Source: Siniperca chuatsi
Taxonomy: Eukaryota > Chordata > Actinopteri > Centrarchiformes > Sinipercidae
Length of the DNA stretch: 64,000 nucleotides
Direction: 5' to 3'
Assembly (NCBI RefSeq): GCF_020085105.1
Contig: NC_058064.1
Location: 5,001-69,000, forward strand
A program made the translations under genes and the position numbers. Under the pieces are notes generated by a model. The model searched no databases, was not told where the DNA came from, and saw nothing but the letters and a program-made list of their open reading frames with translations. Shown one piece after another: positions 6,313 through 61,515 of the stretch (within the stretch, counting starts at the first letter, position 1; every line of letters begins with the position of its first letter).

Positions 6313-9300
6313 TTAAGAGGCTGTGGACACTGAAGACGTCTCAGTCTTTGAAGAAACGTCAGATGGTTCATCCATTTTCTTTCCAAAGACCATCTCCATG
6401 ATGCAGGCGTTAAACTGAAGAGAAGAGCAACAATAAAGATTATTATTATTATTATTACAGGATTTTATTAGAACCTCTGTTTGATCCGGTCTGACCTGAG
6501 TACAACAAAACACAGCTGGACACACAAACGGCATCAGGAACAATCACACACATCTCTAAACATGTTCAAAATGAAGTTGGATTTCATCCAATGGGATGAG
6601 ACATTCGAGAGTCAAACACACCTGAGATCACCTGAGCACTTCTAAATGTGAGCAGAGAAGTGAGATACTGAGGCAGCTTTTGCAGACCTTTATAAATAAA
6701 CATGATTTCTAAATGCGCGTGCTGCCTGCACGTCACAGCTGTTTTGTTGATGCTTCCTGTGGAAGTGGATTGTAGATGAATTTAGTCCATAAATCTGTCA
6801 GATAACGTTACTGACTGTAAGATGCTTCTTCTTAACGGCAGGTGCAGCAGATCAATCAGCTTCTGAATAGAGATATTGCAGTAATTACGTTTGCATTTGT
6901 CCATTCGTCCGTCTGTCTCATTATCGTTTGTTTTTGTTCGTTGGCCAAACATTTGATCGTAGTTTTCATTTCCAAAGGTTACTTTTTGTTTAGTTCTAGT
7001 CTCGTTTTCGTCGTGAGAAAAAGTTTGTCAATAAATGTTTCGTCATAGTTTTCATTGACAAAACTAAAAGTGGTTAAACTGTGCTCACCTGTAGAGGGAA
7101 GGGTTAACTGTGCTCACCTGTAGAGGGAAAGGTTAACTGTGCTCACCTGTAGAGGGAAGGGTTAACTGTGCTCACCTGTAGAGGGAAGGGTTAATTGTGC
7201 TCACCTGTTGAGGGAAAGGTTAACTGTGCTCACCTGTAGAGGGAAGGGTTAACTGTGCTCACCTGTTGAGGGAAAGGTTAACTGTGCTCACCTGTAGAGG
7301 GAAAGGTTAACTGTGCTCACCTGTAGAGGGAAGGGTTAATTGTGCTCACCTGTAGAGGGAAAGGTTAACTGTGCTCACCTGTAGAGGGAAGGGTTAATTG
7401 TGCTCACCTGTAGAGGGAAGGGTTAACTGTGCTCACCTGTTGAGGGAAGGGTTAACTGTGCTCACCTGTAGAGGGAAAGGTTAACTGTGCTCACCTGTTG
7501 AGGGAAGGGTTAACTGTGCTCACCTGTAGAGGGAAAGGTTAACTGTGCTCACCTGTAGAGGGAAGGGTTAACTGTGCTCACCTGTAACCTGTAGAGGGAA
7601 AGGTTAACTGTGCTCACCTGTAGAGGGAAGGGTTAACTGTGCTCACCTGTAGAGGGAAGGGTTAACTGTGCTCACCTGTAACCTGTAGAGGGAAAGGTTA
7701 ACTGTGCTCACCTGTAGAGGGAAGGGTTAACTGTGCTCACCTGTTGAGGGAAAGGTTAACTGTGCTCACCTGTAACCTGTTGAGGGAAGGGTTAATTGTG
7801 CTCACCTGTAGAGGGAAGGGTTAACTGTGCTCACCTGTTGAGGGAAAGGTTAACTGTGCTCACCTGTAGAGGGAAGGGTTAACTGTGCTCACCTGTAGAG
7901 GGAAGGGTTAACTGTGCTCACCTGTTGAGGGAAAGGTTAACTGTGCTCACCTGTAACCTGTTGAGGGAGGGGTTAACTGTGCTCACCTGTTGAGGGAAAG
8001 GTTAACTGTGCTCACCTGTAGAGGGAAGGGTTAATTGTGCTCACCTGTAGAGGGAAAGGTTAACTGTGCTCACCTGTAGAGGGAAGGGTTAATTGTGCTC
8101 ACCTGTAGAGGAAGGGTTAACTGTGCTCACCTGTTGAGGAAAGGTTAACTGTGCTCACCTGTAGAGGAAGGGTTAACTGTGCTCACCTGTAGAGGGAAGG
8201 GTTAACTGTGCTCACCTGTTGAGGGAAAGGTTAACTGTGCTCACCTGTAACCTGTTGAGGGAGGGGTTAACTGTGCTCACCTGTTGAGGGAAAGGTTAAC
8301 TGTGCTCACCTGTAGAGGGAAGGGTTAATTGTGCTCACCTGTAGAGGGAAAGGTTAACTGTGCTCACCTGTAGAGGGAAGGGTTAATTGTGCTCACCTGT
8401 AGAGGGAAGGGTTAACTGTGCTCACCTGTTGAGGGAGGGGTTAACTGTGCTCACCTGTAGAGGGAAAGGTTAACTGTGCTCACCTGTTGAGGGAAGGGTT
8501 AACTGTGCTCACCTGTAACCTGTAGAGGGAAAGGTTAACTGTGCTCACCTGTAGAGGGAAGGGTTAACTGTGCTCACCTGTAGAGGGAAGGGTTAACTGT
8601 GCTCACCTGTAACCTGTAGAGGGAAAGGTTAACTGTGCTCACCTGTAGAGGGAAGGGTTAACTGTGCTCACCTGTAGAGGGAAGGGTTAACTGTGCTCAC
8701 CTGTTGAGGGAAAGGTTAACTGTGCTCACCTGTAACCTGTTGAGGGAGGGGTTAACTGTGCTCACCTGTAGAGGGAAAGGTTAACTGTGCTCACCTGTTG
8801 AGGGAAGGGTTAACTGTGCTCACCTGTAGAGGGAAGGGTTAACTGTGCTCACCTGTAGAGGGAAGGGTTAACTGTGCTCACCTGTAACCTGTTGAGGGAG
8901 GGGTTAACTGTGCTCACCTGTAGAGGGAAAGGTTAACTGTGCTCACCTGTTGAGGGAAGGGTTAATTGTGCTCACCTGTAGAGGGAAGGGTTAACTGTGC
9001 TCACCTGTTGAGGGAAAGGTTAACTGTGCTCACCTGTTTGTTCATGAAGGCGTAGATGAGCGGGTTGTAAATACACGAGCTCTTGGAGAAAAACGCCGGG
9101 ATGGTGACGAATCGATAATCTTTGTTTTCGTCTGAAGAGTAGCTGAAGTAAAGACCTGCCAGAGCGTACGGACCGTAACAGGTGACGAAGGATGCCACCA
9201 TGATGATGATCATCCTCGATACTTCCTTCTCCGCCTTCTGGGTGGAGGCCGACTCCGTCTGCTGGGCTGCTACCTGAAGAAAACAAACAAGAAGTTCAAA

Positions 9301-10474
9301 CCAGGACGAGGATTTTCTGAGTCGCCAAAGACTCTAGGTTCTGTCTGCTGCAACAGAAACGTTATTTTTTAACATGTTTCCGAAGTTGTGACGCTTTCCT
9401 CATCAACAAAAATCACAAAATAATCACATGAGAGAAGTGAGATGCTGCTGGTGTTAAACTCACAGCTCTCAGAGCGCCCAATAACTGAGAGTAGGAGAAG
9501 ATGATGATGCTGAGCGGACTGATGAAGCAGGTCACTATCAGGAACTGTACGTAGCTGCTGCAGTTAAACTCCTCGCTGTGAGTGTACCAGTCGGGTCCAC
9601 AGGAGCAGCCCAGACCCTCGGGGATGTACCTGAAAACAAAAACATGGTTCATGTTTAAAGCATCAGATCGACTCAGACTGATGAGCTCCTACAGGTGTTA
9701 CCTACCTGCTCCAGCCAAAGAAAGGTGGGGCGGCACAGCCGATCCCCATGAACCAGGTGAAGGCGACAGCAGCCAGAGCATGGTGACTGCCGAACTTAAA
9801 GGCTCCAAACGGTTTACAGATGACCAGGTATCTCTCAAAAGACAGGGCAGCCAAAGACCAGGCCGTCACCAGTCCTGAAGACACAGAAGGGGTTAAAATA
9901 TGACAGTAGAAAGAAAGATTAAATCAACAGTCAGTAGTTTGACTAAAAATCATCTGTATCTCATTGTGTTTGCCTGCTGTTGAGATCAAATAAAACTCAC
10001 TCAGCTGATTTTATTGAAAAGATAAAACAGTTGGTAATAGAGCCCATGGCAGACTCGGGGCACACGTGGTGTGATGTAACATCTGTAGCATCTACCTGTT
10101 GCTGAAATAAAATAAAACAGCTGATTTGATCTACCTGCTATTGATCCCATGGCAGCCTCAAGGGCACACAAGGTGTAACCCAGGAAGTAGTAACCCCTCA
10201 GGGTGGCGACAAACACCTGACTGACAGAGAAGGTGACGAAGATGAATCCTGAGAAGCAGATGTTGACGAGGATGTAGTTGAGAGGGACTCGAAGCTTCTC
10301 GTACTTGACCGTCACGAGGAGAACGATAAAGTTTAAAGGTGCTCCCGTGAACAGAACAATGCCCATAAAGATGGTCTGCAAGTGAAACGCCCAATGAGGG
10401 GCCAGGTAATACTGGGGCCCCTCGAAGGGACTCACTTTAGAAATGTTCTCGTACAGGTGGAAGTGTTTCCCCAT
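6313..10474 (-). CDS. opn1sw1: SWS1 (UV-sensitive) cone opsin
   Basis: Five exons on the minus strand: 10474-10135, 9874-9706, 9629-9464, 9273-9034 and 6414-6313. They splice in phase to 338 residues; exons 2-4 measure 169, 166 and 240 nt, the sizes I recall for SWS1. It is a seven-helix GPCR that binds retinal. Visible are an N-terminal NIS glycosylation site, the counterion Glu113 (CALEAA), the Schiff-base Lys296 in [11 protein letters not shown], the NPLIY motif and a Ser/Thr-rich tail. By bovine numbering the tuning sites read F86, S90, Q93, A97, A114 and S118. Phe86 is the known signature of a UV-tuned pigment, so I infer UV sensitivity. The protein ends SVSTAS and lacks the VxPx-type end seen in many opsins. 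The position between calu and tnpo3 agrees with vertebrate synteny. Intron 4 holds a minisatellite that abuts the exon-4 donor. Confidence 0.95.
7071..9033. repeat. ~29-bp minisatellite in opn1sw1 intron 4, each unit carrying splice-site motifs
   Basis: Roughly 65 tandem copies of a 29-bp unit, GTGCTCACCTGTAGAGGGAA followed by GGGTTAACT. Variants differ mainly by TAGAGG/TTGAGG, AAGGG/AAAGG and TTAACT/TTAATT. Several units carry a 7-base insert (CTGTAACCTGT). On the opsin-sense strand a unit reads GTTAACC, then CCCTCTACAG, then GTGAGCACA: branch-like motif, pyrimidine tract, AG, and immediately a donor. The array begins at the authentic exon-4 donor, which is itself the first unit. Larger blocks also repeat, for example around 7951 and 8245. 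Confidence 0.97.
10021..10080 (-). repeat. Decayed copy of the 3' edge of opsin exon 1
   Basis: The stretch with CCCATGGCAG and GGGCACAC at 10043-10066 mirrors the end of exon 1 at about 10146-10175, and so does some flanking intron. The offset is about 103 bases. The copy has lost the donor and is diverged, so it is a relic of tandem duplication and not an alternative exon. Confidence 0.65.
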
Positions 10475-13330: not shown

Positions 13331-31543
<18,213 letters not shown>

Positions 31544-31561
31544 CTGCAACCTTCACACGAC

Positions 31562-32785
31562 AACACCAGGTAACCATTCACACGACACCAGGTAACCATT
31601 CACACGATGACACCAGGTAACCATTCACACGACACCAGGTAACCATTCACATAACACCAGGTAACCATTCACACGATGACACCAGGTAACCATTCACACA
31701 ACACCAGGTAACCATTCACACGACGACACCAGGTAACCATTCACACGACACCAGGTAAACATTCACACAACACCAGGTAACCATTCACACGACACCAGGT
31801 AACCATTCACACGACGACACCAGGTAAACATTCACACAACACCAGGTAACCATTCACACGACGACACCAGGTAACCATTCACACGACGACACCAGGTAAC
31901 CATTCACACGATGACACCAGGTAACCATTCACATAACACCAGGTAACCATTCACACGATGACACCAGGTAACCATTCACACAACACCAGGTAACCATTCA
32001 CACGACAACACCAGGTAACCATTCACACGACACCAGGTAAACATTCACACAACACCAGGTAACCATTCACACGACACCAGGTAACCATTCACACGACGAC
32101 ACCAGGTAACCATTCACACGACGACACCAGGTAAACATTCACACGACGACACCAGGTAAACATTCACACGACGACACCAGGTAACCATTCACACGACGAC
32201 ACCAGGTAACCATTCACACGACGACACCAGGTAACCATTCACACGACGACACCAGGTAAACATTCACACGACGACACCAGGTAAACATTCACACACGGCG
32301 ACACCAGGTAACCATTCACACGACGACACCAGGTAACCATTCACACGACGACACCAGGTAAACATTCACACGACGACACCAGGTAAACATTCACACGACG
32401 ACACCAGGTAAACATTCACACGACGACACCAGGTAAACATTCACACGACGACACCAGGTAAACATTCACACGACGACACCAGGTAACCATTCACACGACG
32501 ACACCAGGTAAACATTCACACGACGACACCAGGTAAACATTCACACGACGCGACACCAGGTAAACATTCACACACACGACACCAGGTAAACATTCACACG
32601 ACGACACCAGGTAAACATTCACACGACGACACCAGGTAAACATTCACACGACACCAGGTAACCATTCACACAACACCAGGTAAACATTCACACAACACCA
32701 GGTAAACATTCACACAACGACACCAGGTAAACATTCACACGACACCAGGTAAACATTCACACGACACCAGGTAACCATTCGTAAA
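31562..32785. repeat. ~19-25-bp minisatellite just after the tnpo3 stop, each unit with a CAG/GTAA donor
   Basis: About 50 copies of CACCAGGTAACCATTCACAC with ACGACGA-type spacers of variable length (units of about 19-25 bp). There are AACCATT and AAACATT subtypes, and the AAACATT type dominates the later part. It starts 19 bases after the tnpo3 stop codon. The first unit supplies a CAG/GTAAC donor at 31569/31570 that could splice to a good acceptor at 32958/32959, so the whole array may be a 3' UTR intron. Confidence 0.95.
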
Positions 32786-43097: not shown

Positions 43098-43145
<48 letters not shown>

Positions 43146-46100
43146 CATATATGATTCTATATTAACATTTTCAGTATTTAGAAAAAAGCAACTTGCTGGA
43201 AACCAGTTAAAGCTTAGAGGTGAATTTGTATGCAACACTTTGCAATTTGCCAATTTTCATTTCCATTTCCAAAGTCTGGAATCATCTTCTAGTAGGAAAT
43301 AATGGATTGTTAATAATTTTTGCTGGCAAGTAGTAATAATTTATTTATAGTGAATCTTTACTGGGATCAACCAATTAAATACCGACCATGTGTTTTAATT
43401 GTAGAACTTAAACTCCCTTAAAGAGTTGAAACTCCAGCAGCATTTGTAGTCTTAAGAGCAACTTTACTCTCTGACTGACTTGTTTCATGTTTAGGTCTTC
43501 ATCAAGATCATATGGTTCTTCAAGTGTTTTATGATCGATACGATGATGAACATAAACTGAATTGAGTTGGCCTGACAATAAAGCCTCCAATGTACTACAA
43601 AGTCAACTCCCCTCAAGTCAGTAAAACTTCCAAATACCCAGACAGACTACACAGGTCCTGACCTTATTGTATTCAATTCAATTAAATTCAATTTTATTTA
43701 TATAGTGCCAATTCATGACAGAAGTTATCTCATTGCACTTTTCCTACAGAGCAGGTCCAGACCGAACTCTTTATAATATTATTTACAGAGACCCAACAAA
43801 TCCCACCATGAGCAAGCACTTGGCGACAGTGGCAAGGAAAAACTTCCTTTAAGAGGCAGAAACCTCGAGCAGAACCAGACTCAATGGTGGGCGGCCATCC
43901 GCCGCTGCCGTGTTAGGTTCAGAGTATTATCTACAGTCCTGTACACATGTATAAAACTATTAGAGCATCCTCACCTGTGTTCCCGGGCTGCTCACAGACC
44001 TCGTAGATTTTGTACGGTTGGACCGGAGTTTCTTTAGTGCCGTCAAATTTCAGCTGAAACTCTCTGCTTTTGTTCAGAGCACAGCGAAGGTTTGCTTTCC
44101 ACTTTGCAGGGTCAGGTTCATCCACACCTTCCTGATATTTACCTGTCTCCAAAGCCCACGCCTGAAAGACACAGGGCAGGGTTTACATGCATAGCAATAC
44201 ATTTAACTTAAAGATTGTAGTTCACACCTGAAAGACACAGATACGGTTTTTAAACAGTCAGCACATTTAAATGAATAGTTTGACATTTTTGGAAATAGTA
44301 ACGATTAGTGTCACACTGTATGCCGACATTGTTCAACTGAAGTTGGATATGTCTGTGGAAACACTTCAAACATGTCATTTACAAAGGCATCACCCAAAGG
44401 TGTTGATTAGCGAACGAGACACAAAACCATACTGGAAGGCGAGTCCTGCCCCCCACAACAATCAGGCAGCCTCTCACTGCAGATTCGGACCATGCCAAAG
44501 TAATAACTGATGCTATAGGAGAGTTTATCGCTGCAGATATGTGACCGTACTCAGTCGTAGAGAGTACAGGATTTAAGTGTATGGTCAAAGTGCTTGAGCC
44601 CGCTACAATGTGCCTTCAGATGAGCATTTTAATCAGTCCATTGTGCAGCTCTGTATAAACGAGCACAAGCTGCAGTTGTTCAGGAATTATCAACAGGTCA
44701 GAGTCTTATGATGGAGTATTACTGACATTTGTGTTATTTCTTTTGTTATTAACAATAATCCAGTACTTGAGTGCATTAACTGTTAAAGTAAGAATTATGG
44801 CCAATGAGCAAAATTGTTTTCTAATTTTCTACATTTCTTTGAATTCCCTGCTGTACCAAAAACGTACCGAAGCGTGACCCTAAAACCAAGGTACACACCA
44901 AACCATGAATTTTGTGTACTGTTACACCCCTAGTTTGTTAAAATGTCTGTAGTTCTTTTCACCAAGTGGGAGATATCGTGGCTGTCAAAAATTCCCGACA
45001 TAAGTCGAAAGCTGGCGTTTTTCCCTCACTCGGCTGCTCGTAACTACTGTTCAAACGATATTAAATAACATAACCCAACAATATATGACATATAGCATGA
45101 CGCAGCATATAACAAAAAAACATAAAATAACACAACATATAACATGACGCATAACATGAGATAACACATAACAAAATATAACATAATACTGTTTTTACAC
45201 TTAAACCAGATATAACATGTTAATCAGTTAGAGGTGCTGGTAGGTGGATTTTGTTCCCTTTGGACAGAGCCAGGCTAGCTGTTTCCCCCTGTTACCAGTA
45301 TTTATGCTAAGCTAAACATATTTAGCATACTGACATGAGAGTGGTATCAATCTGAACATCTGACTCTCAGAGAGGAAGAGCAGAGGATTTCCCTAAATGT
45401 TGAAGTGTTGCTTTAAGTATCAAACTGATGCAATCACTGAATGAAAACATGTGAAGACTCTGAAAACACTCCCGATTAAAAATCTAAAGTTTGGGGTTTA
45501 ATGTATCTGTGCTCAAAGTCAAACTACTAAAGTCAGTCTGAACAGCGTGATCAGAAATAAAAGCAGAAGCAGTGACCAGTGAAGGAGGAAGTGACATCAT
45601 CAGCAGTAAAGTTTAGGAGCCAATCAGCATGTTTCTCAGACTGAAGTCAGTTTTACAGAAACAGTGAAATGAAACTCTGAGGCTCAAACACAGGAAGTGG
45701 AGGAAGTCATACAGCTACTTCTTCTTCATGATTTTTGTGTTTTAACTGTTTTTATTGTTGGGGGTTGTTAATATGAACTCAGAGCTGTTTTAAACTGATC
45801 AGAATTCACTTTGCAATAACATCAAATGATGAAAGTGAGAATGTATCAGTGCATTCACTGTGAGAAGAGGAGGTGAGCGTCATTCATTTAAGCTTCAACA
45901 TAAAAACTTCAAAGTTTTAAAATCCATCAGTGATGCAGCCTGAGAAAGGCTCTCTCTTCTTCCTCATCATCACATGTTTAACTCCTCACTGCTCCAAAGG
46001 AGCTGCTAAACTAACTAACCCTAACTGTCAAATATCAAACATGTTTAAAGAAATCTTTGTGAGAGCGACTGGCAGCGACTTCAGATTGGACCCTTTACAT

Positions 46101-49812: not shown

Positions 49813-50418
49813 TCATTCATTCATTCATTATATTTCACATTTTAGGTCCAGTAATTACAGGGATTGATTTTTAAATTGAAAAACTTCATTTTGATGTTTC
49901 TTAAATAATCATATCTTTAAGTGACCCATTTATGAGCCAGTCTGTCCTCTGATTGGCTAAAAGGAAAGAAAAAATTAAGAAATCCTGTTGCACATTTGTC
50001 TTTTCAATGCTTCAGTATTATAAATAGTATGAGTATTTAAATTGAGCTGATGCAGCAGGAGTTAATGTGGGTCAAAGGTCAACAGTCGACCAATCAGAGC
50101 TGCTGTTGCTGCTCTCTGTGTTAATGTGCATTGGCTACAGTCGTTTTTATGGATTCACAAGTCTTTAAAATAATTTAGGATATTACTATATATATTATAT
50201 TATATAAAGGTGAAGAGACCTCTCGAGGCTTTTATTGTGAAGATGCATCAGGTAGTTTCCGGTGTGTTTTCTCTGCAGGTGTTTTTACAGTCTGACAGAG
50301 ACACTTGTGTGTTTTTACAGAAGTAGTTCAGGCTCCTCCCCTTCCTTCCGCTGCACACAGGAAACTAAAGTTTGTTTCATTTTCAGGGCAAAAAATCTAC
50401 TGAACAACTTTATAACGA

Positions 50419-51690
50419 CTGACTGACTGACTGAATCACTGAATCACTGACTGACTGAATCACTGACTGAATCACTGACTGAATCACTGACTGACTGACT
50501 GAATCACTGACTGACTGAATCACTGAATCACTGACTGACTGAATCACTGACTGAATCACTGACTGAATCACTGACTGAATCACTGAATCACTGACTGACT
50601 GACTGACTGACTGACTGAATCACTGACTGAATCACTGACTGACTGAATCACTGAATCACTGACTGACTGAATCACTGAATCACTGACTGACTGACTGACT
50701 GACTGACTGAATCACTGACTGAATCACTGACTGACTGAATCACTGAATCACTGACTGACTGACTGAATCACTGACTGAATCACTGACTGAATCACTGACT
50801 GACTGAATCACTGAATCACTGACTGACTGACTGAATCACTGACTGACTGAATCACTGAATCACTGACTGACTGAATCACTGACTGAATCACTGACTGAAT
50901 CACTGACTGACTGACTGAATCACTGACTGACTGAATCACTGAATCACTGACTGACTGAATCACTGACTGAATCACTGACTGACTGACTGAATCACTGACT
51001 GACTGAATCACTGAATCACTGACTGACTGACTGACTGACTGACTGAATCACTGACTGAATCACTGACTGACTGAATCACTGAATCACTGACTGACTGACT
51101 GAATCACTGACTGACTGACTGACTGAATCACTGACTGACTGAATCACTGAATCACTGACTGACTGAATCACTGACTGACTGAATCACTGAATCACTGACT
51201 GACTGACTGAATCACTGACTGACTGAATCACTGACTGACTGAGTGACTGACTGACTGACTGAATCACTGACTGACTGAATCACTGAATCACTGACTGACT
51301 GACTGAATCACTGACTGACTGAATCACTGACTGACTGAGTGACTGACTGACTGACTGATTAAATGACTGACTGACTGACTGAATCACTGACTGACTGAAT
51401 CACTGACTGACTGACCGAATCACTGACTGACTGAATCACTGACTGACTGACTGACTGATTAAATGACTGACTGACTGACTAAATGACTGACTGACTGAAT
51501 CACTGACTGACTGAATCACTGACTGAATCACTGACTGACTGATTAAATGACTGACTGACTGACTGAATCACTGACTGACTGAATCACTGACTGACTGACC
51601 GAATCACTGACTGACTGACTGACTGACTAAATGACTGACTGAATCACTGACTTACTGAATCACTGACTGACTGATTAAATGACTGACTGA
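50419..51690. repeat. CTGA/ATCA minisatellite upstream of irf5
   Basis: About 1.27 kb built almost wholly from two tetramers, CTGA and ATCA, arranged as (CTGA)n-ATCA with n of 1 to 6. Variants with TTAAATGA and GAGTGA appear only toward the right end (from about 51240). Reading frames across it (SVSDSVIQ) are artefacts of the period. It starts about 1.5 kb upstream of the irf5 first exon. Confidence 0.97.
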
Positions 51691-51949
51691 CTTCACGTTG
51701 TTCATCATCAGTAGTTTAAACACTGACTGAATCACTGTAACTACAAACTACAGTTTCTAAAACTGTAGAAGAAGAAACTGGAACTGATCAAATTTAAATA
51801 ACAGGTCTGATATTCGTGTGTTTTTTATGTAACGTGAAGGTCAAAATGTACATAGTTAAGATTGATTTGTTATATATATGTACATACATAGATCTCTCTC
51901 TATATATAGATGTGTGTAGATATACATTTAAAAAAAACTTCATCCTTCA

Positions 51950-53975
51950 CCTCCCGCGGGTGGTCTCATCCTTCGAGCTCAGGTCCTCTACCAGAGGCCT
52001 GGGAGCTTGAGGGTTCTGCGCAGTATCTTTGCTGTTCCTAGTACTGCACTCTTCTGGACCGAGATGTCTGGTGTTCTTCCAGGGATCAGCTGTAGCCACT
52101 CCTCCAGTTTGGGGGTCACTGCCCCGAGTGCTCCAATGACCACGGGCACCACTGTTGCCTTCACCTTCCAGGCCTTCTCCAGCTCTTCTCTGAGCCCCTG
52201 GTACTTCTCTAGTTTCTCATGTTCCTTTTTCCTGATGTTGCCATCGCTTGGTATCGCCACGTCAACCACAACAGCTTTCCTCTGCTGTTTGTCCACCACC
52301 ACGATGTCAGGCTGGTTCGCCATCACCATTCTGTCAGTCTGGATCTGGAAGTCCCACAGGATCTTGGCTCGGTCGTTCTCTACCACCTTTGGAGGTGTTT
52401 CCCACTTTGACCTCAGGGTTTCCAGTTCATACTCAGTGCAGATGTTCCTGTACACTATGCCAGCTACTTGGTTATGGCGCTCCATGTATGCTTTTCCTGC
52501 CAGCATCTTACACCCTGCAGTTATGTGCTGGATTGTCTCAGGGGCCTCTTTGCACAGCCTACACCTTGGGTCTTGTCTGGTGCGGTAGATCTGGGCCTCT
52601 ATTGCTCTGGTGCTCAGGGCCTGCTCCTTTGCAGCCATGATGAGTGCCTCTGTGCTGTCCTTCATTCCAGCCCGCTCTAGCCATTGGTAGGACTTCTTGA
52701 TATCAGCCACTTCAGTTATGTTCCGGTGGTACATCCCATGTAGGGGTTTGTCCTCCCTTGATGGTCCCTCCTCCAGCATCTCTTCCTCTGTTCCCCATTG
52801 CCTGAGACATTCCCTGAGCATGACATCTGTTGGGGCCTTATCTTGGATGTACTTGTGGATCTTGGATGTTTCATCCTCGATAGTGACTCTCACACTCGCT
52901 AGTCCACGGCCGCCTTCCTTACAGCTAGCGTACAGTCTCAGGGTGCTGGATTTGGGATGGAACCCTCCATGCATGGTGAGGAGCTTTCCAATGTCATGAA
53001 TGACATCCCAATGTCAGAGCTGTAGATCCTGGTGGTGTGGATCAGTGAGTCGATGTCCCGTTTGCTCTTAGCGTATAGCTTGATGTCATCCATGTAGAGG
53101 AGGTGACTGATGGTGGCCCCATTCCTGAGTCGGTATCCAGTCTTGTTGATTATTTGGCTGAGGGGGTTCAGACCTATGCAGAACAGCAGTGGGGACAGAG
53201 CATCTCCTTGGTATATGCCACATTTGATGGATACTTGTGCAAGTGGCTTGCCTTTGGCCTCAAGGGTGGTTTTCCACAGCCTCATCGAGTTTGCAATGAA
53301 GTCTCTTAGAGTCCTGTTGATGTTGTACATCTCCAAGCATTCAGTGATCCATGTGTGTGCCATTGAGTCATATGCTTTCTTGTAATCAATCCAGGCAGTG
53401 CACAGGTTGGTGTGTCGGGCTCTGCAGTCTTGAGCGACTGTTCTGTCAACCAGGAGTTGGTGTTTGGCTCTTCTGGTTCCTTTGCCGATGCCCTTCTGTG
53501 CTTTGCTCATGTATTGATCCGTGTGTCCACTTATCTTAGCCGCAATGATGCCTGACATGAGCTTCCATGTTGTGGAGAGACAGGTTATTGGCCGATAGTT
53601 GGATGGGACTGTACCCTTTGCGGGATCCTTCAGGATAAGAATTGTATACCCTTCGGTAAGCCATTCAGGGTGCATCCCATCCCTTAGCAGCTGGTTCATT
53701 TGTGCTGCTAGGCGCTCGTGGAGTGCAGTGAGCTTCTTTAGCCAGTAGGTGTGGATCCTGTCAGGGCCCAGTGCTGTCCAGTTTTTCATACCTGAGACTC
53801 TTTCACTCTGGAGGTCTGCTCTGCTGTTATTACCCTGCCATTGAGCGTACACTTTCGCAGGTTGAGTTGCGAACAGCCGGTTTATTCTTCTGGCTTCATT
53901 ATCTCTCGGATACCTCATTAGGCAGCTGGCCAAGGCTTGGAGCCTTTGTTTGGCAGTTTCGAGTGCTTCAGGTCA
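51950..53975 (-). mobile_element. R4/Rex6-like non-LTR retrotransposon, internally deleted
   Basis: Two minus-strand frames, 53933-52938 (331 codons) and 52974-51988 (328 codons). The first is a reverse transcriptase: LGPDRIHTYWLKKL, SNYRPITCLST, AWIDYKKAYDSM, GIYQGDALSPLLFCIGL and the catalytic YMDD at 53095-53084. The second has the zinc motif C-x2-C-x8-H-x4-C (CRLCKEAPETIQHITAGC) and then a restriction-like endonuclease with QPDIVVVD...VVVDVAIPSD and KLEKYQGL. A downstream restriction-like endonuclease instead of an upstream APE domain places it with the R2/R4 group; Rex6 is the R4-type family known in fish. The frames meet at ~52960 with a frameshift and a short repeat (GACATTGG), and the RT region that usually follows YMDD is missing. 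The 5' end is truncated at the neighbouring Tc1 piece. Not functional. Confidence 0.8.
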
Positions 53976-56101: not shown

Positions 56102-59100
56102 TTATGTGTTTCTGTTCTGTAATTGGCTACTGCTGCAGTCAGTGTCCTCTGAGCTGGGCTCGTCTGCAAACAAACAGATCACAGAGACCATCGTCCTGTA
56201 CGGGTCCTCTGACTCCTGTAACATCTCCTCTGATTGGTCAGTTTCCATATCGTCGTCTCTCTGAAGAGTTACTGTGTTCACTGCTGTGATGTCATCACTG
56301 TGAACTCCTGCGGACACACCTGTGGAATGTAGACCCTCTCTAACGTTAGATAATCTGGGGGTTTCATTGGTTTCTGTCGCCTCAGACCGCCCTTCTGGTT
56401 TTTCTACGACAGGAAACAGTTCAGAGTGAAGTCTTGATCTTCCTCCAGGATCACTGATGAAGATGTTTGATGAAGATGATGAAGGAGGAGGAAGCAGAGA
56501 GTGTTTCCTGGTGTAGACTCCTTGTCTGCCATGAAAACTCTCTGAGTGTGAAGAAGACTCATGGCTGAAAGCTCTGTTGCTGTATGAAGACTCCTCCATA
56601 CAGAAGACATGTCGACTGGAGCTCACCTGTCAGTCAGAAAGAGTTTAGATTTAGGTTCAGTTTGTTTTTTTAATTTCATCATGTGAGACGGACAGACTCT
56701 GAATTTTTTTCTCAATACAGAGTACAAATTCAGACTCGTATTCTTGGGAGTTTGAAGTTGTCAAGTTCAGTTCAGAATTCAAACTCCTGAGAACAGATCA
56801 GTTTGTAACGGACATCAGCAGATTAGCAGGACACTGATGATTTCACTTCAACACACCTGCAGCTGTTCATAACTTCTGTTCATAACTTCAAACTGTTCAT
56901 AACCTTAAACTGTTCTTAACTTCTGTTCATAATTTCTGTTCATAACTTCATATTGTTCATAACTTTAAACTGTTCCTAACTGTTCATAACTTCAAACTGT
57001 TCATAACTTCTGTTCATAACTTCAAACTGTTAACATCAAACTGTCCATAACTTCTGTTCATAACTTCTGTTCATAACTTTAAACTATTCATAACTTCAAA
57101 CTGTTCATAACTTTAAACTGTTCATAACTGTTCATAACTTCAAACTGTTCATAACTTCAAACTGTTCATAACGTTACACTGTTCTTAACTTCTGTTCATA
57201 ATTTCTGTTCATAACTTCATATTGTTCATAACTTTAAACTGTTCCTAACTGTTCATAACTTCAAACTGTTCACAACTTCTGTTCATAACTTCAAACTGTT
57301 CTTAACATCAAACTGTCCATAACTTCTGTTCATAACTTCTGTTTATAACTTTAAACTATTCATAACTTCAAACTGTTCATAACTTCTGTTCATAACTTTA
57401 AACTGTTGATAACGTTAAACTGTTCTTAACTTCTGTTCATAATTTCTGTTCATAACTTCAAACTGTTCTTAACATCAAACTGTTCATAACTTCAAACTGT
57501 CCATAACTTCTGTAAATAACTTCTGTTCATAACTTCAAACTGTCCATAACTTCTGTTCATAACTTCTGTTTATAACTTTAAACTGTTCATAACTTCAAAC
57601 TGTTCATAACCTCTGTTCATAACTTCAAGCTGTTCATAACTTTAAACTGTTCATAACTTCAAACTGTTCATAACTTCTGTTCATAACTTCAAACTGTTCA
57701 TAACTTCAAACTGTTCTTAACTTCTGTTCATAATTTCTGTTCATAACTTCAAACTGTTCTTAACATCAAACTGTTCATAACTTCAAACTGTCCATAACTT
57801 CTGTAAATAACTTCTGTTTATAACTTTAAACTGTTCATAACTTCAAACTGTTCATAACCTCTGTTCATAACTTCAAGCTGTTCATAACTTTAAACTGTTC
57901 ATAACTTCAAACTGTTCATAACTTCTGTTCATAACTTTAAACTGTTCATAACTTCTGTTCATAACTTCTGTTCATAACTTCTGTTCATAACTTTAAACTG
58001 TTCATAACTTCTGTTCATAACTTCTGTTCATAACTTTAAACTGTTCATAACTTTAAACTGTTCATAACCTCTGTTCATAACTTCTGTTCATAACTTTAAA
58101 CTGTTCATAACTTTAAACTGTTCATAACTTCTGTTCATAACTTCAAACTGTTCATAACTTTAAACTGTTCATAACTTCTGTTCATAACTTCAAGCTGTTC
58201 ATAACTTTAAACTGTTCATAACTTCAAACTGTTCATAACTTTAAACTGTTCATAACTTCTGTTCATAACTTCAAACTGTTCATAACTTTAAACTGTTCAT
58301 AACTTCTGTTCATAACTTCAAGCTGTTCATAACTTTAAACTGTTCATAACTTCTGTTCATAACTTCAAACTGTTCATAACTTTAAACTGTTCATAACTTC
58401 TGTTCATAACTTCAAGCTGTTCATAACTTTAAACTGTTCATAACTTCTGTTCATAACTTCAAACTGTTCATAACTTTAAACTGTTCATAACTTCTGTTCA
58501 TAACTTTAAACTGTTCATAACTTTAAACTGTTCATAACTTCTGTTCATAACTTCAAACTGTTCATAACTTTAAACTGTTCATAACTTCTGTTCATAACTT
58601 CAAGCTGTTCATAACTTTAAACTGTTCATAACTTCAAACTGTTCATAACTTCTGTTCATAACTTCTGTTCATAACTTTAAACTGTTCATAACTTTAAACT
58701 GTTCATAACTTCTGTTCATAACTTCTGTTCATAACTTCTGTTCATAACTTTAAACTGTTCATAACTTCTGTTCATAACTTCTGTTCATAACTTTAAACTG
58801 TTCATAACTTTAAACTGTTCATAACTTCTGTTCATAACTTCTGTTCATAACTTCTGTTCATAACTTTAAACTGTTCATAACTTCTGTTCATAACTTCTGT
58901 TCATAACTTTAAACTGTTCATAACTTTAAACTGTTCATAACCTCTGTTCATAACTTCAAACTGTTCATAACTTCTGTTCATAACTTCTGTTCATAACTTT
59001 AAACTGTTCATAACCTTAAACTGTTCATAACTTTAAACTGTTCATAACCTCTGTTCATAACTTCAAACTGTTCATAACTTCTGTTCATAACTTTAAACTG

Positions 59101-61515
59101 TTTATAACTTCAAACTGTTCATAACTTCTGTTCATAACTTCTGTTCATAACTTCTGTTCATAACTTTAAACTGTTCATAACTTTAAACTGTTCATAACTG
59201 TTCATAACTTCAAACTGTTCATAACTTTAAACTGTTCATAACTGTTCATAACTTTAAACTGTTCATAACTGTTCATAACTTAAATTTGTTCATAACTTCA
59301 AACCTAGTCTGTGTGTGAAGTTTTACGCATCACTAAATTACAACAGGCTGCACCAAACAAACTAATTATCAGTAACGACAGGAGCTGTAAGAGAACAAGA
59401 ACAAATGGACAAATGTGGGCAAAATATAAAAATCCAAAGATATATTAGTAAGACTTGAGCAGGTTTGAACTCATTTTATGATCTTTTGTTTTCAATCAAA
59501 CAATATTTCAGCTTTTAATTCACTGATTTTATCACTTTTTATTCTTTTAAGTTAATCCGACTCCTGATTCAGTTTATTCAGACTTCTGAATACTATGAAT
59601 TATCTAAATGAATGTATGAATGTAGTTTGGATTAAACAGAAATATCTGAATAAATATTTCACATTGTTTGCTCATATGTTGTTTGATAGGTTTTAATGTT
59701 AATGTTAACGTTACCACCAAACACTCAAAATATTTTTTCAATTTCATTTCACTGTCGGCATGTTAATCTTTAGTTGGACAAACTGTTCAAGCGATTTTCC
59801 AAAACCTGTCCCACGTTACTTGGAATCGGCCGGCTTCTTTTGAGTGTATTTTACATGAATGTAAACATCAGCCTTTGACTGCACATGACACCTGTAACTG
59901 GAACCCGGTCCGACTCTCTGATCCAGGACTACCAAAAACCTCCAGAGTACCACTGACACTCAGCGAGAGAGTCTTTCACAGTAGCTGTGATTTATGTATT
60001 TCTGTGCTTACATGAGACTCCTTGTGAAACTAGTTGTTACTGACAGCTGGATATCTGGGCAGGTTTACCCGATGAAGCTAACATTTACATACCTGTCTAT
60101 TAATAACACATTACATTAAAAACATTAATTTATTGTTTGGTCACACTGTGAGCAGTAGGAGTGTTTTTACATATTGTGTTTTATTTTGTATGTGTAAATG
60201 CAGACCAGCTCATTTTATTCTTTGTTTTAGACAGAAATGTAAATACTTTAACACTATGTAAAGTCCTTTATTTAAATCAAAATATCAGTCAGAAAAAATC
60301 ACAGATATATTCCTCAAATCTATCAGCGGTATGTGAACACAGGGCTCTAATATTCACCACATGATATTGAAGATGGATGTTAATGTACTCTCCTCTAAAA
60401 AAGAAACACAGGACACCACAGAAAGACTTCCACTCCACTGATGTTGGCTGTAACAAAAGCACATCACAGGAAGTCCACACTGACTATCACAACATCACAT
60501 CACTGAAGAGCAGCTTTAAACTCACCGTCTGAAACCACAGGAAACTCTACAGAAGAAGAGGTAACACATGAGACAGGAGAGTTTGTATCATCTCATTATA
60601 AATGTATACAGTTCTTCACTGTCTGAAAGTAACAGTAAACTCTGCAGAAGAAGAGCTAACATGAAATATACAGAGTGCAGAGAAAGAATCAGAAGAGTCT
60701 GAATATTTTATATCATCTGAATATAAACTCACAGACTTTGGCATTTTACAGCTCTGTGTTATTTCCTTCATGAACCCATGTTGTGTTGTGCAGATGAAAA
60801 CTGAAGTGACCTTTTATAACTGCCCTGATTTAAAGCTACAATAACTGATTTGATTTTGTCCACTTGTTTTCAGCATAAACAAGTTGTGAACACAACACAG
60901 ACATATCACCTTTCAAGTTGATATGTTGAACTGTATGTGTTTTAAGTTGTTAATTTCCACATCCACAGTGGCTTTTTTTCAGCTTTTTCTCTGAAAACGA
61001 TGCTATGAGAGCAGTGAGAGAGAACCAGAACAGTAAAGTTGTGGCCGAACAGATAAACAACGAGCTGAAAGTCACTATAAAGCTCCGTAATGCCGAGCGG
61101 AGCTGCAGATTCAGCTGATGATTCACTACCAGAGACACCCAACACATTGTCACACTGTTTTCACATTGTCACTTCATACATTGTTTTTATAAAAATATAC
61201 CTTATAGACACTTTAAGGTTATAGAGAAATAGGCCTACTGCAGATTTGAAAGTTTTTTTTAATATGTTTTAATGTTTCAAATATCTCGTCAGGTGTATTA
61301 AAGTGATTCAGTTCGTACCACGTTGGGATGTTTCCCGAGGGCGACGGGTGCGTGTTCGTCAGCGTTTCTTTGTCGTCGTCTTCTCTTTAAAGTTCGAAGC
61401 AGCAGAAACAGAACAGATGATAGAAACAATAGCAGGATCATTGCTGCGATTCCTCCTGCCAGTCTGCTGTCCACATCCCCAAACAACTGCTGCTCAGTGA
61501 ATTCACCACAAGGGA
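56102..61515 (-). CDS. Unidentified single-pass membrane protein, transmembrane exon and cytoplasmic-tail exon (partial)
   Basis: Two exons are clear. 61515-61319 encodes a juxtamembrane PCGEFTEQQLFGDVDSRL, a transmembrane helix (GGIAAMILLLFLSSVLFLLL) and a basic stop-transfer run (RTLKRRRRQR). It starts in phase 1 after TTTTCAG and ends in phase 0 at CAACGTG/GTACGA. 56626-56102 starts in phase 0 after CTGACAG and codes for 174 residues, rich in Ser and acidic, ending QLQNRNT. Acidic patches (DDDMETDQSEEM) occur near the C-terminus. The orientation is type I, with an extracellular part that should lie above 61515; I found no exon there up to 64000, and the gene may run off the window. The exon phase and PCG start would suit a TNF-receptor-like or Ig-like receptor, but no diagnostic motif supports either. 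The intervening 4.7 kb intron holds a minisatellite and a candidate microexon. Confidence 0.7.
56865..59305. repeat. CTGTTCATAACTT minisatellite in the membrane-protein intron
   Basis: About 2.4 kb of 13-17-bp units, mostly CTGTTCATAACTTCAAA, CTGTTCATAACTTTAAA and the shorter CTGTTCATAACTT. Unit subtypes change along the array: the left third has more CTTAAC, TTTATAA and CCATAA variants, while the centre and right are more uniform. No splice motif is evident in the unit. Confidence 0.97.
60480..60735. repeat. ~95-115-bp tandem duplication around the candidate microexon
   Basis: ACTCTACAGAAGAAGAGGTAAC and, 95 bases on, ACTCTGCAGAAGAAGAGCTAAC share flanks including TATCATCT and ATATAAA blocks; TTTAAACTCAC at 60516 and TATAAACTCACAG near 60722 also correspond. 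Two diverged copies with possible partial third. Confidence 0.5.
60526..60546 (-). CDS. Candidate 21-nt microexon of the membrane-protein gene
   Basis: On the minus strand a pyrimidine tract CCTCTTCTTCTGTAG is followed by 21 bases (SFLWFQT) and a strong donor GTGAGT. Both neighbouring coding exons meet in phase 0 and 21 is divisible by three, so inclusion keeps frame. A diverged relative with a like acceptor (CTTCTTCTGCAG) lies at 60641-60620 but measures 22 nt with a weaker donor GTGAAG. This is inference from splice signals only. Confidence 0.35.

What the first reader, a model, noticed from the sequence alone, without database searches (positions are those of the whole stretch)
7071..9040. 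Opsin intron-4 minisatellite is an array of recursive-splice-like sites
Seen directly: on the opsin-sense strand every ~29-bp unit reads GTTAAC, then CCTTCCCTCTACAG (or CTCAACAG), then at once GTGAGC. That is a branch-like motif, pyrimidine tract, acceptor AG and a strong donor with no exon between them, repeated about 65 times. Known: such juxtaposed 3'/5' splice sites are the ratchet points of recursive splicing. Inference: the intron could be removed in steps, could generate 29n-nt pseudo-exons, or could soak up U1/U2AF in UV cones. I know of no described case of a minisatellite made of ratchet points.
Basis: partly seen in the sequence, partly recalled or inferred. Interest (0 to 1): 0.75.

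Follow-up and report, generated by a model that had tools for sequence, protein, structure and literature searches.

The report
Opsin splice donor copied 66 times
In a fish UV-opsin gene the start signal of an intron has been copied 66 times in a row as a 29-base repeat; the motifs are real, but they most likely arose by DNA duplication at the splice site, and stepwise 'recursive' splicing through them is possible but unproven.

Summary
Intron 4 (6415-9033, minus strand) of an intact SWS1 opsin begins with 66 copies of CAG|GTGAGCACA. Of the 65 copies after the first, 56 match a published recursive-site motif (Y5+N0-4YAGGT); 34 other annotated introns hold 7 such sites in 22.8 kb.

Two smaller TNPO3 arrays (31548-32780, 26002-26062) also start at donors: 3 of 5 intronic arrays (P=0.0005). 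Nine of 37 window introns carry a copy of sequence flanking a splice junction (three weakly), against 0 of 55 myosin introns. The unit core was found only here in the 719-Mb genome; seven other opsin intron-4 starts lack it.

Best reading: a young minisatellite born by tandem duplication across a 5' splice site near a chromosome end, its copies mostly inert. Array acceptors are weak (6.2 bits against 16.6 native), and 64 of 65 downstream donors would truncate the opsin. Tandem AGGT dual-specific splice sites (human UBC) and a donor minisatellite (IFI6) are already described: a new variant. Recursive splicing cannot be tested without RNA.

The parts
9034..9273 (-). SWS1 exon 4 (ends ...FMNKQ, CAAACAG); its last bases AACAG are shared with the repeat unit
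   Evidence: 5 nt exon-side homology
6415..9033 (-). SWS1 intron 4, 2619 nt; native acceptor AG at 6415-6416
9028..9033 (-). copy 1 of the array = native 5' splice site GTGAGC of intron 4
7072..9037 (-). 29-nt minisatellite, 66 copies of CAG|GTGAGCACA; 9 units carry an extra GTTACAG (36 nt), 3 lack one C (28 nt)
7060..7088 (-). copy 66, diverged (GTGAGCACAGTTTAACCACTTTTAG), runs into intron sequence that is not repeated: right-hand edge of the array
6313..6414 (-). SWS1 exon 5, coding part, to the stop
31548..32780 (+). sibling array, 25-nt unit, starting across the inferred donor (31570) of the TNPO3 3'UTR intron; unit shares about 22 nt with the exon end; 51 AGGTAA copies
   Evidence: human TNPO3 has a non-coding exon 23 joined to exon 22 (PMC3646821, passages)
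26002..26062 (+). sibling mini-array, about 23-nt unit, 2.7 copies, starting at the donor (26005) of TNPO3 intron 17
16014..16065 (+). TNPO3 intron 2: donor (16018) copied once at +39 (16057) as ACAGGTAACATGT
9973..10176 (-). SWS1 intron 1: degenerate tandem duplication of the exon 1 end and intron 1 start (donor 10134; donor-like copy at 10095); limits of the loose alignment
19678..19840 (+). TNPO3 intron 7: acceptor plus exon start duplicated upstream (46-nt match; exon starts 19813)
20983..21108 (+). TNPO3 intron 10: acceptor plus exon start duplicated upstream (about 40-nt match; exon starts 21085)
25085..25376 (+). TNPO3 intron 15: acceptor region duplicated upstream (33-nt match; exon starts 25373)

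Best explanation
The array is a minisatellite that was born on the gene's own 5' splice site. A short DNA segment spanning the exon 4/intron 4 border (...AACAG|GTGAGCACAGTTAACC...) was tandemly duplicated and then amplified in blocks, so each unit inherits the native donor and the CAG before it. The acceptor-like part is the Y-rich intronic end of the duplicated segment. In RNA, exon 4 is most likely still joined to exon 5 from copy 1, and copies 2-66 act mainly as inert or weak decoys. Because the unit starts with GT and ends with AG, use of a downstream donor would leave a retained block that is itself GT...AG; if it is three or more units long it could be removed in a second step and give the exact exon 4-exon 5 junction. 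That would make the expansion tolerable. Shown: the sequence, the coincidence with the border, other junction duplications in the window, the unit core found only at this locus. Inferred: the duplication history, use of copy 1, tolerance by second-step splicing.
For: Copy 1's GT is the donor, and exon homology ends 5 nt into exon 4. Copy 66 decays into non-repeated intron. Sibling arrays start at two other donors; 3 of 5 intronic arrays start at a donor, P=0.0005 under random placement. Copies of junction-flanking sequence pass the alignment test in 9 of 37 window introns against 0 of 55 myosin introns (Fisher p=0.00014; 6 of 37 and p=0.003 without the three weakest; introns of 350 nt or less: 3 of 19 against 0 of 48, p=0.02). 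All 65 exact genome-wide matches of the unit core lie in this array. Seven other opsin intron-4 starts show no donor array in the roughly 0.5 kb examined. The block of unit types DCDBEBA occurs twice, as expected of block amplification. Location: the window is C23:5001-69000 of a 23.7-Mb contig, and the 11 CAGGTRAG array clusters that I count on C1 in the listing lie within 1.9 Mb of the ends of that 38.1-Mb contig. The native acceptor scores well above the array's (16.6 against median 6.2).
Against: No RNA was available, so use of copy 1 is an assumption. Whole-site scores put the array's donors and acceptors inside the range of real sites (donor 44th percentile, acceptor 35th), so use of some copies is credible. 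No orthologous fish locus could be searched, so the duplication history is not polarised. Acceptor-side copies are as common in the window as donor-side ones (5 and 4). Three of the 9 hits are weak (TNPO3_i2, TNPO3_i12, IRF5_iC, scores 24-26). A simpler 18-mer test is less clear-cut: at 2% or fewer controls, 3 donors and 5 acceptors of 37 in the window, but also 3 acceptors (0 donors) of 55 myosin introns. In 17 motif-selected arrays elsewhere 9 start within 5 nt of AG|GT against 5.5 expected (P=0.05), so genome-wide generality is not shown.
Confidence: 0.68

Rival explanations
1. Recursive splicing: exon 4 is joined in steps to array units used as zero-length exons, each step regenerating CAG|GTGAGC, before the final join to exon 5.
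For: 56 of 65 unit borders and 9 sites inside 36-nt units match the published recursive motif, against 7 in 22.8 kb of other introns. The regenerated donor is identical to the native one (sequence). Recursive splicing is reported in human introns of median 3.4 kb, down to 0.2 kb (PMC10156609 section 8).
Against: The branch-like A lies 15 nt from the acceptor G. Intron-side acceptor score is 6.2 against 16.6 for the native site. A 29-nt step is far below the shortest of the 37 introns annotated here, 76 nt. Sibling arrays at donors lack acceptors. An intron of 2.6 kb needs no ratchet (inference).
Confidence: 0.12
2. The array leaks: a fraction of SWS1 transcripts use downstream donors or whole-unit pseudo-exons, giving truncated or frameshifted opsin and lowering output; array length then tunes UV-opsin level.
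For: 65 competing donors identical to the native 9-mer. Donor 2 gives a frameshift (+90 aa), donors 3-66 a stop 10 aa after exon 4, and 2071 of 2080 whole-unit pseudo-exons lose the native C-terminus.
Against: No transcript data; the open reading frame is intact, so the gene seems to be kept despite the array; retained units may be removable in a second step.
Confidence: 0.1
3. Selected splice or U1 platform: the units are kept identical because many U1/U2AF sites are useful (anchoring, protection from premature polyadenylation, or titration).
For: 66 of 66 copies keep CAGGTGAGC and the variable columns avoid it; one AATAAA lies between array and exon 5.
Against: Avoidance is not convincing: P=0.05 for the 12-nt block and 0.13 for the 9-nt donor if 5 variable columns fall at random. 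Recent block amplification gives the same purity. The first 211 nt tested (exon end and array start) fold no better than shuffles (z=+1.1).
Confidence: 0.06
4. Chance: an ordinary minisatellite whose unit happens to contain AG|GT and happens to abut an exon.
For: Tandem arrays rich in CAGGTRAG are common in this genome (2163 overlapping matches against 368 for the reversed motif).
Against: Its first copy is the donor itself, and two more arrays in the window start the same way (P=0.0005).
Confidence: 0.04

Closest known systems
Dual-specific splice sites (AGGT) in tandem arrays, human UBC and 77 human introns (Duan et al. 2024, PMC10809524: abstract, passages and section 8 seen)
   Same: Tandem array whose unit borders are AG|GT, usable in principle as 5' or 3' splice site; a unit-multiple can be spliced out.
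   Different: UBC units are coding and splicing is shown by RNA; here the units are intronic, mostly 29 nt, not a multiple of 3, the first one is the native donor, and no RNA evidence exists.
IFI6/6-16 minisatellite with multiple splice donors (Turri et al. 1995; seen only as cited in PMC4526556 and PMC2915984)
   Same: A minisatellite that supplies several splice donors.
   Different: There, two downstream repeat units are stated to be used as donors (PMC4526556); the paper itself is not held, so unit details are not compared.
Ratchet points / recursive splice sites (Joseph et al. 2021 PMC8605326, passages; Hoppe et al. 2023 PMC10156609, passages and section 8)
   Same: Juxtaposed acceptor and donor; motif Y5+N0-4YAGGT met by 56 of 65 copies.
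   Different: Described Drosophila sites lie mostly in long introns with well-conserved motifs; here 65 sit side by side in a 2.6-kb intron, with weak acceptors and a short branch distance.
Intron gain by tandem duplication of AGGT-containing segments (Rogers model; ATP2A1; 24-bp AGGT repeats in fission yeast genes; potato RdRp; PMC4974935 abstract and introduction read)
   Same: Tandem duplication carrying AGGT or an exon-intron border supplies new splice sites.
   Different: There, new introns arise from exonic segments or at a border; here an existing intron's donor is multiplied inside the intron.

Membership tests
Recursive splice sites / ratchet points | Sequence Y5+N0-4YAGGT (tract, acceptor AG, immediate donor GT) | tested here: met
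   56 of 65 unit borders plus 9 AG|GTTACAG sites
Recursive splice sites / ratchet points | Acceptor strong enough to compete with the native one | tested here: inconclusive
   35th percentile of real sites when exon bases are included, 15th percentile intron-side; native 16.6 against 6.2
Recursive splice sites / ratchet points | Splicing intermediates or lariats into the site | not testable with these tools
   no RNA data
Recursive splice sites / ratchet points | Evolutionary conservation of the site | not testable with these tools
   no orthologous fish locus on hand; seven other opsin intron-4 starts in the same genome lack it
Tandem arrays of dual-specific splice sites | AG|GT at the unit borders, GT...AG multiples of the unit | tested here: met
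Tandem arrays of dual-specific splice sites | Same AGGT used both as 5' and as 3' splice site | not testable with these tools
   no RNA data; copy 1 is a 5' site by gene structure
Minisatellite nucleated at a 5' splice site | First unit coincides with the gene's donor | tested here: met
Minisatellite nucleated at a 5' splice site | Ancestral single-copy donor in an outgroup | not testable with these tools
   no orthologous locus available
Dispersed introner-like element | Many copies at unrelated loci | tested here: not met
   65 of 65 exact matches of the unit core in the genome lie in this array

The most novel reading that the evidence does not exclude
Minisatellites nucleate at real 5' splice sites and are tolerated because their AG|GT borders make them self-correcting: whichever of the 66 donors is chosen, leftover GT...AG blocks can be spliced out later to give the same mRNA. 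SWS1 intron 4 would then be removed by many alternative multi-step paths, and array length would set how often they fail, and so UV-opsin output.
Probability: 0.15. Interest if true: 0.8.

Novelty: new variant of a known kind. Interest (0 to 1): 0.45.

Why it matters
Identical competing donors in a row test how the spliceosome picks one 5' splice site out of 66 with the same sequence, and whether AG|GT arrays are removed in more than one step. If duplications across splice junctions regularly seed minisatellites near chromosome ends, they are a route by which ordinary genes acquire dual-specific splice sites, variable introns and perhaps new introns. It also shows that a natural visual gene with an intact reading frame coexists with such an array.

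Tried and rejected
Rejected: a dispersed repeat (unit core found only here). Strong selection on the donor motif (P=0.05 and 0.13). A stable RNA fold (z=+1.1 for 211 nt). A rule that donor copies carry an acceptor: it looked striking at first (of 105 AGGT sites in the 34 non-array introns the only one passing both thresholds is the TNPO3 intron 2 donor copy), but with intron-side scores only SWS1 intron 1 and TNPO3 intron 2 lie in the top 6% of intronic CAGs, the first opsin unit in the top 16%, and two of five donor copies are at background (P=0.03, after the fact).

Inconclusive: genome-wide generality. One search found many CAGGTRAG arrays, but of the 17 sampled many are ACAGACAGGTGAG-like runs; one (L052) appears to lie beside an exon on the other strand (by eye, UBE2C-like, recalled). 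For 9 of the 17 I looked for open frames before the first copy and identified no gene.

Limits of the intron set: 21 TNPO3 introns by spliced alignment to human TNPO3 (for intron 13 I took the second-ranked junction), the TNPO3 3'UTR intron inferred, SWS1, CALU and IRF5 introns by eye (the SWS1 reading frame was checked). In one search two IRF5 offsets were one base off; corrected. The acceptor value printed for TNPO3_i17 belongs to a site at +1070, not to the array; the array copy is scored. The placement test (within 25 nt of the donor) used 5 arrays of period 10 or more and 2.5 or more copies that overlap annotated introns; a TA run (43098-43164) was left out, and with it the count is 3 of 6. 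The myosin sample has shorter introns (median 104 against 346 nt) and comes from 9 gene regions of one family. TNPO3 intron 17 fails the alignment test; in the 18-mer test 1 of 28 controls is as good. Of the seven opsin paralogue stretches, two have small 12-bp repeats about 0.4 kb after the donor and some introns are very short. An earlier count said 10 of 17; the right count is 9.

Literature: searches; among the titles and abstract starts listed there I saw no minisatellite of ratchet points and no SWS1 intron-4 array. The lists are capped and the library holds open-licence papers only.

Full report
WHAT IS THERE. On the minus strand, window 10474-6313 encodes a complete SWS1 opsin of 338 residues in five exons. 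The best solved relative is human short-wave-sensitive opsin 1 (E=7.7e-137), and Pfam gives 7tm_1. From that alignment I place Phe at bovine site 86, which by recalled rule means UV sensitivity. Intron 4 runs from 9033 to 6415 (2619 nt). Its first 1.97 kb is a minisatellite: 66 copies of CAG|GTGAGCACA in units of mostly 29 nt (TRF 7072-9037). The density is far beyond that of other introns: 56 of 65 unit borders, plus 9 AG|GTTACAG sites, match the motif Y5+N0-4YAGGT used in print to look for recursive sites, while 34 other introns annotated here hold 7 in 22,772 bp.

The first copy is not a decoy: its GT at 9033 is the donor of intron 4, directly after ...FMNKQ. The exon shares its last 5 nt (AACAG) with the unit. 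At the other end, copy 66 keeps GTGAGCACAGTT(T)AACC and then runs into non-repeated intron. This is the anatomy of a tandem duplication that started on the exon-intron border. The order of unit types shows a repeated block of 7 units (DCDBEBA at units 22 and 32), so growth was at least partly by blocks. The unit core has 65 exact matches in the 718.8-Mb genome, all here. Of 24 other matches to the exon 4 peptide I fetched the stretch after seven; all start after the same NKQ or NRQ and none has a donor array in the roughly 0.5 kb examined (0-2 AGGTR each; two have small 12-bp repeats further on).

NOT ALONE IN THE WINDOW. I annotated 37 introns of CALU, TNPO3, SWS1 and IRF5. Two further arrays start at a donor. 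One is a 25-nt array of 51 AGGTAA copies at the 3'UTR intron of TNPO3, whose unit shares about 22 nt with the exon end. That intron is inferred here; in man, TNPO3 exon 22 carries the stop and is joined, in one form, to a non-coding exon 23 (PMC3646821, passages). The other is a 2.7-copy array at TNPO3 intron 17. Three of five intronic arrays begin at a donor, P=0.0005 under random placement in their introns. An alignment test for copies of sequence flanking a junction (against 300 shuffles and against the other introns) is passed by 4 donors and 5 acceptors of 37 introns in the window and by 0 of 55 myosin introns from nine other gene regions (Fisher p=0.00014; without the three weakest hits 6 of 37, p=0.003; introns up to 350 nt, 3 of 19 against 0 of 48, p=0.02). 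A cruder 18-mer test gives 3 donors and 5 acceptors of 37 in the window, 0 donors but 3 acceptors of 55 in the myosins, so the acceptor-side contrast is less sure than the donor-side one. The best cases are TNPO3 intron 7 (46-nt match spanning the acceptor), TNPO3 intron 10, and SWS1 intron 1, where about 30 nt of exon 1 and the intron start are copied downstream. So this locus seems to have suffered repeated small duplications at exon borders.

WHERE IT LIES. The window is C23:5001-69000 of a 23.67-Mb contig. In the listing (capped; C1 comes first) the CAGGTRAG arrays of C1 form, by my count, 11 clusters, all within 1.9 Mb of the ends of that 38.1-Mb contig. Clustering of minisatellites near chromosome ends is known in man (recalled).

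HOW IT MOST LIKELY WORKS. With a position weight matrix from 34 introns of the window, the array donor scores 7.7 (44th percentile of real donors) and the array acceptors have a median of 8.7 (35th percentile) when three exon-side bases are included. Counting intron bases only, the acceptors have a median of 6.2 (15th percentile) against 16.6 for the native acceptor. The branch-like A is 15 nt from the acceptor G, and the shortest intron annotated here is 76 nt, so a single 29-nt step is implausible; steps of three or more units are possible in principle. Using donor 2 would add a frameshifted tail, donors 3-66 a stop after 10 residues, and only 9 of 2080 whole-unit pseudo-exons keep the native end. 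The simplest reading is that exon 4 is spliced from copy 1 and the rest is mostly inert. A further inference explains tolerance: since each unit is GT...AG, a block retained by use of a later donor is itself removable, and the second splice restores the exact junction. This is the logic of the 'DSS expansion' model of Duan et al. 2024 (section 8), applied here to an existing intron.

AGAINST MY READING. There is no RNA and no orthologue. The donor and acceptor motifs fall within the range of real sites, so some use is credible. My own idea that donor copies generally carry acceptors did not survive a fairer score. Generality beyond the window is not shown (9 of 17 sampled arrays begin within 5 nt of AG|GT, 5.5 expected, P=0.05).

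COMPARISON. By sequence it meets the description of a tandem array of dual-specific AGGT splice sites (human UBC; [quoted passage not shown] PMC10809524). It resembles the IFI6 minisatellite that supplies several donors (Turri et al. 1995, not held, known through PMC4526556). It meets the sequence definition of recursive sites, but the defining evidence, intermediates or lariats, cannot be tested here. Tandem duplication carrying AGGT or an exon border as a source of splice sites is known, including 24-bp AGGT repeats in fission yeast genes (PMC4974935 introduction). New here, as far as the searches named in Tried and rejected show, are the scale (66 copies), the intronic setting on a native donor, and several such events within one 64-kb window.

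Noticed in passing
window 51988-53972 (minus): Two long open frames (341 and 344 aa) that look like a reverse transcriptase of a non-LTR retroelement (YMDDIKLY; recalled motif).
   Followed up: no
window 50417-51692 and 56863-59300: Two further large tandem arrays (GACTGACTGAAT-type, and CTGTTCATAACTT-type of about 2.4 kb) whose consensus units have no AGGT, outside the annotated genes.
   Followed up: no
window 19678-19840, 20983-21108, 25085-25376: Duplications at acceptors and exon starts in TNPO3 introns 7, 10 and 15: about as common as donor-side ones, but not grown into arrays.
   Followed up: partly
G000 contigs C1 and C2 (L039-L055): CAGGTRAG arrays: 2163 overlapping matches against 368 for the reversed motif, on C1 listed only near both contig ends. 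L041 and L044 have similar flanks before the array, perhaps a small dispersed family.
   Followed up: partly
G000:C16:28499108-28501138 (L056): A myosin head matching positions 2-679 of 679 in one uninterrupted frame of 1969 aa: an intronless, perhaps retro-copied, myosin heavy chain.
   Followed up: no
window, SWS1 intron 4 between array and exon 5: A sense-strand AATAAA starting 55 nt before the end of the intron, relevant to any idea of U1 protection from premature polyadenylation.
   Followed up: no
window 23237-23352: A perfect 12-bp x 9.7 array (CTCAGCGACACA) inside TNPO3 intron 12, 190 nt from the donor: an intronic array that does not start at a donor.
   Followed up: no
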